Assembly (NCBI GenBank): GCA_029245725.1
Contig: JAQWOT010000182.1
Span: 1 to 39,087 of the forward strand
From: SAR324 cluster bacterium
GTDB lineage: Bacteria; SAR324; NAC60-12
Reading direction: 5' to 3'
DNA length: 39,087 bases
In this document: piece by piece, positions 3,855 to 10,612 of the stretch
How the letters are laid out: every line of letters starts with the position of its first letter
How positions within the stretch are numbered: position 1 is the stretch's first letter
Notes under the pieces: model-generated
The model's database searches: none
What the model was told of the DNA's origin: nothing
What the model saw: only the letters and a program-made list of their open reading frames with translations
Made by a program: the position numbers and the translations under genes

Positions 3855-5679
3855 ATGGTTCGTAAGCTAACGCAAACCAACATTGAAGACCCTTTGATCA
3901 TCCTAGGTGAGATCCTTCCCAAGCCACTCAATAGACTGGCCCCCGAGCTAGAAATTTTGACTGGAATAAGCTGCTTGAATCGTGAATATGAGCAACTTTC
4001 AGTCGACCTGAAATCAGCTAATTTCTGGGAAATCTCCCTCAGCACACTGAAGGTTGAGCCTCGAATTTCAGAAGAAGATCTGCAACACATCCCTGCCAAG
4101 GATCCCCTTGTTATTGTTGCCGATCATCCCTTTGGTGGGCTTGAAGCTGTCGTCCTTGGCACGTTGCTGAAGCAAGTCCACCCAGACTGCTGGATGATGG
4201 GCAACTATTTGCTCAACAAGATCCCGGAAATCCAGCTCTGGATTTTCCCAGTCGATCCCTTTGGAAATCCGTCTTCCAGTCCAGCCAACAGCAAAACATT
4301 ACGTGAAACACTGCACTTTGTGCGTGCAGGGGGAGCGCTGGTCATTTTCCCAGCTGGAGAGGTCTCATATCTCCACTTGAAGTCACTAAGTATCATGGAT
4401 TCAGCGTGGACACCTCATGTCTCAGCAATTTTGCGAATGACAAGGGCGACTGTCCTGCCGATGTTTTTTCGAGGTCAGAACAGCATCCTCTTCCAGTTGC
4501 TTGGTCTGATTCAGACAAGATTGTGGACCGCGTTATTGATCCAAGAACTTTTCAACAAGCAAGGGTCCTCTGTTGAGATTTTCGTTGGGCAAGGTGTTCC
4601 TTACAAGCAGTTGCAGGAATTTGAGTCCAACGAAAAACTGATTGAATACCTTCAGTTCAAGACCTACTTCCGTGTGAATCAACGACACAAACAATTGATT
4701 CCCTTACCCAAATTGCTACTTCAGTCTCGCTCAATACGAAGACCAATCGCCGAGGCATCAGCACACAACCAGTTGAGCTTGGAAGTTGAAGGCTTGCTAC
4801 AGGAACAGCTGTTGGTGGAAACGGAGGATTTTCTTGTAGGATACGCGAATCATACTCAGGTCGATGAGTTGATGCATGAGATTGGCAGGTTGTGAGAAAT
4901 TACCTTCCGTGCCGTGGGAGAAGGTTCGGGGAAGTCTTTGGATTTAGATGCCTATGACGCAAGTTATCTGCACCTGTTTCTCTGGAGTAAGACAGAGGGT
5001 AGACTGGCTGGTGGGTATCGGCTCGGTTTGGTCGATAGAATTGGTAGGACTGCCGGAGTGAATGGACTCTACACTCATGCACTGTTTGAACTGAGTTCAA
5101 AATTTGTCGCAGAACTGAATCCTGTAATCGAAATGGGACGCTCCTTCATTCACCCTAACTTTGAACGACAGGCAGCACACCTGTCGTTGCTTTGGCGAGG
5201 GATTGGAAAATTCTCGTCCAGCACCCCCACCAGAATCTCTTTGGGCCCGTTAGCATCAGCCAGAGCTACTCAAGGACATCAAAGAACCTGTTACTTCGTT
5301 TTCTCAAAGCAAACCATTTTGATCACCGCCTGTCTCAGGAAGTTCGCCCAAGAACTCCATACCGACATCCACAGTCCATCCCCACAAGAAACAGTTTACG
5401 GAATACCCCCAATGATCTCGAAGAAATCAGCAATCTAATTTCTGAGATTGAGCGGGATAGCAAGGTCCTGTGTTGGTACGTCACTATCTGCGCTTAGGGG
5501 CTCGATTCCTCTGCTTTAGTGTGGATCGAAACTTTTCAAATGCATTGGATGGACTGATTGTTGTTCACGTGCCTTCTATTCCGCTAGCCTTGGCTAAGCG
5601 TTTCATGGGGAAAGATAGCGCACTCGCTTATCAGGAGTATCACCAAAGTCCAGAAGTCAAACAATCACAAGTGGTCTGA
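3855..5679 (+). pseudogene. Two-domain lysophospholipid acyltransferase + OlsB-like GNAT, broken
   Basis: ATG at 3855 follows a good GAGGAATAAAG ribosome site. Residues 1-346 form a PlsC-like acyltransferase: VADHPFGGLEAVVLG carries the His of the HX4D-type block, and FPAGEVSY the second conserved block. An in-frame TGA at 4893-4895 interrupts the linker, after which EITFRAVGEGSGKSLDLD starts an OlsB/hemolysin-type N-acyltransferase domain (RLAGGYRLGL, LYTHALFEL, EMGRSFIHPNFER). Two single-base losses follow: near 5205-5208 (frame 3 to 2, resuming ILVQHPHQNLFGPVSISQSYS) and near 5467 (frame 2 to 1, resuming LVRHYLRLGARFLCFSVD). The gene ends with TGA at 5677-5679. Fused proteins of this type are implicated in acyl-lipid or ornithine-lipid synthesis. 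The PlsC part alone (346 aa) could in principle still be made. Confidence 0.82.
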
Positions 5680-8215: not shown

Positions 8216-8419
8216 CAAAGAAAAAATTATTGAGAGATGAGAAGAAGGTACGGGTTAGAAACGATTTATAAAATTCAACAAAAACAGTTGTATGTAATGA
8301 AAAGAAGAAGTGCTTGGGGGTGAGGCAAGCAGATTGCAGATTACCATCTTAACAATGACGAATACAGCTGGATAATTAGGCATCTCCGGGTGCGATCACG
8401 GTTGACAAGGAAATCTGTT
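8216..8419. other. Divergent intergenic region between proB and the 79-aa gene
   Basis: About 200 AT-rich bases separate the starts of proB (minus) and the small unknown gene (plus), so promoters for both directions should lie here. I see no strong consensus promoter, no repeat and no recognisable riboswitch. A plus-strand extension of the small ORF back to a GTG at 8390 is possible, but the ATG at 8420 is the more natural start. Confidence 0.4.
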
Positions 8420-8659
8420 ATGAGCAAGCATGCGCAGTACCATCGGGAGGATCTCCTTCCGGAAGATCGAAACCAGGAAAATGAGAAGAAGAAAGATGAA
8501 AACTTTCTGAATTTGTGGAGTTACCTCAGCCGGCGTTACCCAGACATTGATATTGAGAGCAAGCCCTTCATGGAATTGATTCAATTGAAGACGGCTTTGG
8601 AAGGTCCCCGAGAATTGCGCCACTGGAACAGTGATATTGCCACCGTTCGCAAGCGCTGA
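8420..8659 (+). CDS. Small charged protein of unknown function (79 aa)
   Basis: Not recognised. The 79-residue product is soluble and highly charged: an N-terminal third rich in Glu, Lys and Asn (DRNQENEKKKDEN), then a likely helical part with Trp and Tyr (LNLWSYLSRRYPDID) and a basic C-terminus (TVRKR). No signal peptide or membrane segment is seen. It lies 27 bases upstream of the 641-residue gene in the same reading frame. Two in-frame TGA codons separate them, so they are distinct ORFs and probably co-transcribed. It may be a partner or regulator of the larger protein; that is inference from adjacency only. An alternative GTG start at 8390 would add ten residues. Confidence 0.6.
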   Translation: MSKHAQYHREDLLPEDRNQENEKKKDENFLNLWSYLSRRYPDIDIESKPFMELIQLKTALEGPRELRHWNSDIATVRKR

Positions 8660-8686
8660 TTATTCCTGCTCCACTGAGCTTCATGC

Positions 8687-10612
8687 ATGGCTGTTTCAGG
8701 CTTCAGCGAAGAGTTTTTTGCAGACCGGTTTCGTCGTCCTGGGAACCTTAATGTCCTTGAGCAGCAACTCCGCGACTACGATCTTCAGAAAACGGAGCAA
8801 ACTTTTGACAAGGAGTTTGTTCTCAAAAATCTGCACTTCTCGGCAAAACTTCCGGAGAAGGCAGTTACACTGCTTAAACACCTCATTCCTTCCATCCTCG
8901 AATTTTCAGCAAGTCTAAACCTAAGGCTTCGCGATCCGAATCATCAAATCCGCTTTCTACCTGTTCATGAATTTGAGTCTGAGTCTGGTTTGCAGTTGCA
9001 AGGGAAGGTGCCTTTGCCAGCTTCCAGACTTGATTTCAATGGAATTTCGAGAGTCTACACGGTCACTATCATTCTGCCGGAAGAGATCAAGACCAGTGAA
9101 CAGATCATCAATATCACCCGTACCTTATTTTCCAAGCTGATTGGAGAAATTTATCTGAATGAGAGCGTACTGCCAATGGAATTCTACCAGCAGGGTTCTG
9201 ATAGTGAGCAGTCGGGTGTAAGTGCAGGGATGCTTGAAAAGCTGGATATCCTTCGTACTCAGGAAGTTTCGAGCGTAGGCTGGGATCAGCAGTGTCAAAG
9301 TTTTGCTCAGCAGGGCCGATATTCGCTCAAGAAAGATGGAGAGAAGATCCGGGCTCAACTGACGACTCACTGGAGACAGCTTTGGGAAGCCCAGGCCCTA
9401 CCAAAACAAATCAACCAAGTGATTGAACAATCCTTTGAAGACTTTCTGGAAACCTTTCCCCGCAATCCAACGGATGTTTTGCAGAAGAGTTTGCTGGAGG
9501 TCAAGAAGTTGGATCGACAGATTCATTTTCTACTTCCACATGAGCATCGAGCGTATTCACGGTTTGAACGTGAAGATCCAGCACATTATCTCAGGGCAGC
9601 TTCCAATAAGCTGGAAGAAATTGATGGGTTGATCGGTTTTATTTCAGAGTTGGCAGCCAATCTGAAAGAGGGTCGGGAGGATTGGGAGCCTGAAGAAGTA
9701 CTGATTCAGTTGGCGAATCGGATGAGACAGCTTCAGCAAGAACGCAAAGCCCTGGTTTTTCTGTTACCAAATCAGCCGATTTCACACGCATTACAACGAG
9801 AACGCCAACAACTTCCGATTCAATTACTTAAACAATTGCCCAGAAGCTTACCTGTCAAAGAATGGTCAGGCTTTGTCAAGGAACTGCAGGGACAGTATGA
9901 AAACTCTATCTACTTAAAGCTCTGGGAGGCGCTTCGAGGACTGCATCGTTGGATCAGTTTGAACCAACAGCATTCAGGAAAAAATCCCCTCGAAGATAAG
10001 CATGTCAAGCGCCTTCAGCAGCTACTTAGAAATTTTCAATTTCGGTTGCCGTCGATTCAACAAACACGCTCAACGACAGGAGTTTTGATCAATTGTGCTG
10101 AAGAGTTTTTGCGCAATGATCAGCGTCAACGCTTTCCACTGGGAGAGTTTCGCAAGGCATGGAGCTATTTTATCTCTTCAATTCTGATTACACGCTATTA
10201 TGAAGCACATGCAGGTCAACAGCGTTTCAATAAGGAACGCTACATGGATTCGATCAGACATTTTGTAGAACGCCAAGTCCACCGAGGGATCAACTACTAC
10301 CACTTAGTTTTATTGTTTTTGCGAATCTATGAGGAGCGCGAACAAGACAAGCAAGTGGTCCCCTATCTACTTTACATGATCCACTACCCTCAAGCTTCTC
10401 TACGATTTATTTTTCACCGATTGTTGGCTCCGATTCCTTCTGGTCGTCACTATGAAGAAGATGAACTTCCTCGTCGACTGAAGCGAGTTGACGAGTACAC
10501 TTACACGCTCTTGAAAGTGTATGAGAATCGGTTGCAGACTGCGATTCTTGAGGAAAATGAGGGGCGTCCCTTCACCGAGGCTCTACGCAAATCTCGATTA
10601 GGAACTGAGTGA
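8687..10612 (+). CDS. Large soluble protein of unknown function (641 aa)
   Basis: I do not recognise the family. The frame is open for 641 residues with normal-looking coding content, and ends at TGA just before the convergent pyrC. No signal peptide, transmembrane segment, Walker motif, zinc-binding cluster or other catalytic signature is visible. Roughly residues 60-175 look mixed alpha/beta (RVYTVTIILPEEIKTSEQ). Residues 180-420 are strongly charged and probably helical, with many Gln, Glu, Arg and Leu. Residues 480-641 form a helix-rich, aromatic and basic C-terminal region (RQVHRGINYYHLVLLFLRIY, RRLKRVDEYTYTLLKVYENR), a composition seen in scaffolds or nucleic-acid-binding proteins. The start ATG at 8687 has no good ribosome site; coupling to the 79-residue gene upstream is likely. 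This is a lineage-specific candidate for follow-up. Confidence 0.75.
   Translation: MAVSGFSEEFFADRFRRPGNLNVLEQQLRDYDLQKTEQTFDKEFVLKNLHFSAKLPEKAVTLLKHLIPSILEFSASLNLRLRDPNHQIRFLPVHEFESESGLQLQGKVPLPASRLDFNGISRVYTVTIILPEEIKTSEQIINITRTLFSKLIGEIYLNESVLPMEFYQQGSDSEQSGVSAGMLEKLDILRTQEVSSVGWDQQCQSFAQQGRYSLKKDGEKIRAQLTTHWRQLWEAQALPKQINQVIEQSFEDFLETFPRNPTDVLQKSLLEVKKLDRQIHFLLPHEHRAYSRFEREDPAHYLRAASNKLEEIDGLIGFISELAANLKEGREDWEPEEVLIQLANRMRQLQQERKALVFLLPNQPISHALQRERQQLPIQLLKQLPRSLPVKEWSGFVKELQGQYENSIYLKLWEALRGLHRWISLNQQHSGKNPLEDKHVKRLQQLLRNFQFRLPSIQQTRSTTGVLINCAEEFLRNDQRQRFPLGEFRKAWSYFISSILITRYYEAHAGQQRFNKERYMDSIRHFVERQVHRGINYYHLVLLFLRIYEEREQDKQVVPYLLYMIHYPQASLRFIFHRLLAPIPSGRHYEEDELPRRLKRVDEYTYTLLKVYENRLQTAILEENEGRPFTEALRKSRLGTE

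What the first reader, a model, noticed from the sequence alone, without database searches (positions are those of the whole stretch)
8420..10612. Unrecognised two-gene unit: 79-aa and 641-aa proteins
A compact plus-strand pair between two minus-strand biosynthetic operons encodes proteins with no motif I can identify. The large one is intact, soluble and strongly helical with a basic, aromatic C-terminal region; the small one is charged and 27 bases upstream. Both frames are clean, so they are under selection. This is the best candidate here for an undescribed system.
Basis: partly seen in the sequence, partly recalled or inferred. Interest (0 to 1): 0.55.

Follow-up and report, generated by a model that had tools for sequence, protein, structure and literature searches.

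The report
Unknown signature gene of one phylum
The two neighbouring genes are real: the large one is an unrecognised protein carried once by nearly every sampled genome of one uncultured bacterial phylum (probably SAR324) and found in no other phylum checked, while the small one partners it only within one family, so it is a solid new protein family with an unknown job rather than a proven new system.

Summary
Two clean plus-strand genes, 8420-8659 (79 aa) and 8687-10612 (641 aa), lie 27 bases apart between rlmD-proB and pyrC-pyrB-hemL. Both are under strong purifying selection. Neither matches Pfam, NCBIfam, PHROGs, PADLOC or PDB sequences.

The two proteins have different histories. The large one is single-copy in 47 of 52 genomes of the window's phylum (most likely SAR324), apparently vertically inherited, and absent from 401 genomes of six other phyla: a phylum-signature gene. 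The small one occurs only in the window's own family. There it sits directly upstream of the large gene in all 26 genomes whose assembly covers that spot, across at least three chromosomal neighbourhoods. Elsewhere the large gene lacks it, and in four of nine loci of another family cyaY takes the place. Two genomes carry a second, solo small gene.

So the pair is a real family-level unit, while the large protein is a phylum-level core protein that works without it. Mechanism is inferred only: a non-enzymatic cytosolic binding or scaffold protein with an alpha/beta N-domain and helical body, fitted in one family with a small accessory subunit. Structure prediction failed for lack of a permitted deep alignment.

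The parts
8420..8659 (+). small gene, 79 aa; family-f1 protein with core ENxLNLWxYxxRRxP...LEGPxxLR
   Evidence: ORF; purifying selection; 26-row alignment A2 with 20 invariant columns; found in 26 of 52 genomes of the phylum, all f1
8687..10612 (+). large gene, 641 aa; phylum-wide single-copy protein of unknown family
   Evidence: ORF; purifying selection; 47 of 52 genomes of the phylum; 0 of 401 genomes of six other phyla
8798..9205 (+). codons 38-173 of the large gene: putative alpha/beta N-terminal domain with the conserved L110-P111-A112, R145 and G153
   Evidence: conserved columns; secondary structure from a weak model, mean pLDDT 48.4
8660..8686 (+). 27-base gap between the two genes; no terminator-like site found in it
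8349..8376 (+). promoter-like site upstream of the small gene; weak, and no more than expected by chance
   Evidence: 10 of 12 consensus bases; 2 sites found in the region against 2.6 expected

Best explanation
The large gene encodes a lineage-restricted, single-copy, cytosolic core protein of one bacterial phylum (most probably SAR324). It most likely acts as a non-enzymatic binding or scaffold protein, with an alpha/beta N-terminal domain carrying the conserved LPA...R...G motif and a long helical body. In the window's family a 79-aa protein has become its operon partner and most likely binds or adjusts it as a small accessory subunit. Shown: existence, selection, distribution, linkage, lack of known relatives. 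Inferred: non-enzymatic role, domain layout, operon, physical contact of the two proteins. What it binds is not known.
For: Single copy in 47 of 52 genomes of the phylum (G007 appears as two pieces of one gene); dN/dS below 0.1; tree groups f1 and f2 each as one clade, 99/99 and 100/100. The 15 positions conserved across f1, f2 and f3 at 86% or more include no Asp, Glu, His, Cys, Lys or Ser, against a conserved catalytic centre. Small gene directly upstream in 26 of 26 testable f1 loci although outer neighbours differ: proB side 5, Era-like 8, enolase 7, other or contig end 6. 8 of 19 f1-specific conserved positions of the large protein fall in residues 301-400, a possible contact zone.
Against: No confident structure and no direct sign of contact between the two proteins. 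E159 is 90% or more conserved in A1, so a role for an acidic residue is not excluded. Solo small genes in G008 and G014 suggest the small protein can act away from the large gene. f2, f3 and f4 lack the small protein altogether.
Confidence: 0.35

Rival explanations
1. The large protein is a fast-evolving version of a widely known protein whose relatives sequence profiles can no longer detect. It would not be a new invention.
For: It diverges fast: about 20% identity between families f1 and f3 and 14% to f4. It sits among housekeeping genes in every family: proB/pyrC, Era-like, enolase, holA-like/comEC-like, cyaY, rsmA/hemA (Era, enolase, holA and comEC read by eye).
Against: No consistent match in Pfam, NCBIfam, PHROGs, PADLOC or PDB sequences from 34-45 divergent members, and none in 401 genomes of six other phyla.
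Confidence: 0.35
2. The two genes are unrelated in function: the small gene merely settled next to the large one in the ancestor of family f1 and stayed by inheritance.
For: The small gene is confined to one family, so one origin would explain all cases, and solo copies exist in two genomes.
Against: Linkage holds in 26 of 26 testable loci although the outer neighbours changed at least twice; neutral linkage would be expected to break sometimes.
Confidence: 0.15
3. The pair is a defence or toxin-antitoxin system.
For: A small gene just upstream of a larger one, with no known family.
Against: No PADLOC match for either protein or for 34 members of the large family; single copy and near-universal within the phylum; no match in plasmid or phage records; large gene present without the small one in 19 genomes.
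Confidence: 0.04

Closest known systems
Synapomorphic FESNov gene families of uncultivated taxa (PMC10849945; passages read)
   Same: Unknown family, near-universal in one uncultured phylum, not found outside it in the genomes searched, under strong purifying selection.
   Different: That catalogue could not be searched, so it is not known whether this family is already listed. Coverage here, 47 of 52, is just over the paper's 90% limit, and specificity was tested on a sample of other phyla only.
cyaY (iron donor protein CyaY, TIGR03421) upstream of the large gene in four f3 loci
   Same: A small gene directly upstream of the large gene, same strand, nearly touching or overlapping it.
   Different: The 79-aa protein has no CyaY match and no visible sequence likeness to it; cyaY was not found upstream in f1, f2 or the other five f3 loci.

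Membership tests
Phylum-synapomorphic novel gene family (as defined in PMC10849945) | Coverage above 90% of the genomes of the clade | tested here: met
   47 of 52 genomes, 90.4%; many genomes are incomplete
Phylum-synapomorphic novel gene family (as defined in PMC10849945) | 100% specificity for the clade | tested here: inconclusive
   0 of 401 genomes of six other phyla, but most phyla were not sampled
Phylum-synapomorphic novel gene family (as defined in PMC10849945) | No match to known families | tested here: met
Phylum-synapomorphic novel gene family (as defined in PMC10849945) | Purifying selection (low dN/dS) | tested here: met
   0.044-0.091 for the large gene
Known anti-phage defence systems | Match to a PADLOC model | tested here: not met
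Toxin-antitoxin pair | Toxicity of one partner neutralised by the other | not testable with these tools
   no experiment possible; near-universal single-copy distribution of the large gene argues against
CyaY/frataxin (for the small protein) | Match to TIGR03421 | tested here: not met
   no NCBIfam family for the 79-aa protein
SAR324 phylum (taxonomic assignment of the window) | Placement with named SAR324 genomes | tested here: inconclusive
   Rounded size, contig number and completeness of G026, G012 and G004 agree with GCA_002685535, GCA_002726945 and GCA_002683655 in Table 1 of PMC9031357, but contamination differs for G026 (5 against 2.75) and G012 (5 against 2.2). Named relatives are labelled only Deltaproteobacteria or proteobacterium.

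The most novel reading that the evidence does not exclude
The large protein is a core cellular component invented at the origin of the SAR324 phylum, with a fold and function not found elsewhere, to which one family later added a dedicated small subunit.
Probability: 0.2. Interest if true: 0.7.

Novelty: new member of a known kind. Interest (0 to 1): 0.4.

Why it matters
SAR324 is described as ubiquitous in the ocean, especially abundant in its deep layers (PMC9031357, abstract and introduction passages). If the assignment holds, a gene kept once in nearly all its genomes, under strong selection, and without relatives in the other phyla checked marks something these cells need that current annotation cannot name. 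It could also serve as a marker gene for the phylum and gives a clear target for structure and interaction work.

Tried and rejected
Known-family searches in Pfam, NCBIfam, PHROGs and PADLOC for both proteins, for relatives of the large protein in all four libraries and for relatives of the small one in Pfam only, gave nothing consistent. The best scattered hits were in one to three members each, for example DUF5474 at E 0.0024, SorB at 0.0025 and phrog_38363 at 0.001. PDB sequence search: nothing below E 0.16 for the large and 0.21 for the small profile.

Structure: the large protein alone gave mean pLDDT 36.8; the N-terminal part with five near-identical rows gave 48.4. A Foldseek search with the latter gave 79 matches with E up to 10, none with E up to 0.001; among the 50 rows shown no probability exceeds 0.08. 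It is not used as evidence.

Viral contigs: A1 was not conserved enough to search; A2 and A3 found no relative. A possible fusion in L050 (1466-aa open frame) was read and rejected, by eye, as a chance open frame in GC-rich DNA. The f2 upstream ORFs show no likeness to the small protein. Defence and toxin-antitoxin readings were rejected on distribution. No Rfam or tRNA feature in the window.

Rows left out: loci L029, L030, L031 and L034 duplicate others and were dropped before alignment A1; loci L006-L026 repeat genomes already covered; the G024 fragment has no locus and is not in A1. A4 leaves out near-copies and some fragments (34 rows); the tree also drops L041 (33 rows). Families f1-f4 are the tool's unnamed family labels.

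Full report
Observation. The window holds two clean plus-strand genes, 8420-8659 (79 aa) and 8687-10612 (641 aa), separated by 27 bases. NCBIfam identifies the flanks as RlmD and ProB on the left and PyrC, PyrB and HemL on the right, all on the minus strand. Over all 10 pairs of five congeneric sequences dN/dS is 0.044-0.091 for the large and 0-0.061 for the small gene, so both are selected proteins. The large protein has no evident transmembrane segment and a mildly basic, aromatic C-terminal part. The window is a whole contig (G000:C182) of a 4.4-Mb genome.

Known families. Neither protein matches Pfam, NCBIfam, PHROGs or PADLOC, and the large one matches no PDB sequence. Profiles do no better: the 45-row alignment A1 of the large protein has no PDB match better than E 0.16, and its members match no Pfam family consistently. 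The 34-row alignment A4 adds nothing in NCBIfam, PHROGs or PADLOC. The small protein's 26-row alignment A2 gives nothing in Pfam or PDB.

Distribution of the large protein. With A1 it is found in 47 of 52 genomes of the window's phylum: 28 of 31 in family f1 (the window's), 9 of 10 in f2, 9 of 10 in f3, 1 of 1 in f4. The five misses are 75-91% complete. The f4 member was not in A1, is only 14% identical to the window protein, and was still found at E 1.9e-17, which serves as a positive control. Six other phyla gave 0 of 17, 201, 77, 4, 101 and 1 genomes, 401 in all (the first two with A1, the rest with A4). The tool notes that an empty answer without a control proves little, and most phyla were not sampled. 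Plasmid and phage collections gave nothing. In a 33-row tree f1 and f2 are each one group (99/99, 100/100); f3 is not resolved as one group, and the f4 branch is very long. This fits vertical descent, without proving it for f3 and f4.

Distribution of the small protein. A2 finds it in 26 of 52 genomes, all in f1, and in 0 of 291 genomes of one other phylum. Of the 28 f1 genomes with the large gene, the two without the small one (G024, G028) have the large gene cut at a contig edge; three f1 genomes lack both. So linkage is 26 of 26 testable loci, same strand, 21-121 bases apart. The outer left neighbours differ: rlmD-proB in 5 loci, an Era-like gene in 8, enolase in 7, other or contig end in 6 (Era and enolase read by eye). 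G008 and G014 have a second small gene that stands alone and converges on a hybrid histidine kinase ORF 8 bases away (kinase read by eye), while the large gene is single in both.

Other families. In the f2 and f3 loci examined no small-protein relative lies upstream, and A2 finds none anywhere in those genomes. In four of nine f3 loci (L043, L047, L048, L049) a cyaY gene lies directly before the large gene; three were tested and exceed the TIGR03421 cut-off, the fourth was read by eye and clusters with them. In f4 the large gene lies between rsmA and hemA. The large gene therefore moves among housekeeping neighbourhoods and does not need the small gene.

Mechanism. The 15 positions conserved through f1, f2 and f3 at the 86% threshold are hydrophobic or aromatic residues, Pro, Gly, Ala and Arg, with no Asp, Glu, His, Cys, Lys or Ser. 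This favours a binding or scaffold role over catalysis, though E159 is conserved at 90% or more in A1. The low-confidence models suggest an alpha/beta N-domain (within residues 38-173) with the LPA motif and a helical remainder. Of 19 positions conserved in f1 but not in f2/f3, 8 fall in residues 301-400, a candidate contact zone for the small protein. The physical partnership is inferred from linkage only.

Taxonomy. The relatives found by name are labelled Deltaproteobacteria or proteobacterium. Rounded size, contig number and completeness of G026, G012 and G004 agree with three genomes in Table 1 of PMC9031357 (that section and passages read), contamination less well, and its two GTDB orders fit the split seen here. 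SAR324 is therefore likely, not proven.

Novelty. Phylum-specific unknown gene families are a described kind (PMC10849945, passages read). This is a strong example, and may already be in that catalogue, which could not be searched. Paper searches combining SAR324 with core genes, or with lineage-specific and protein families, found no description of it (listings only). Term searches of the main text of PMC9031357 and PMC8364033 for hypothetical or unknown-function genes found no passage.

Noticed in passing
window 3855-5676: A gene that is one 610-aa frame in relative L002 (acyltransferase-like by eye) is split over three frames here and also looks broken in L004: a decaying gene or assembly errors.
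   Followed up: partly
L071 9164-9388 and L072 2332-2556: Second, solo copies of the small gene in G008 and G014, converging on a hybrid histidine kinase ORF 8 bases away; no second large gene in either genome.
   Followed up: partly
L043, L047, L048, L049, upstream of the large gene: cyaY (frataxin-like iron donor) lies directly before the large gene in four of nine f3 loci; whether this hints at an iron-sulphur link is not known.
   Followed up: partly
window 8360-8420: About 45 bases before the small gene's ATG are nearly identical in five congeneric genomes, including an in-frame GTG at 8390 that could be the true start.
   Followed up: no
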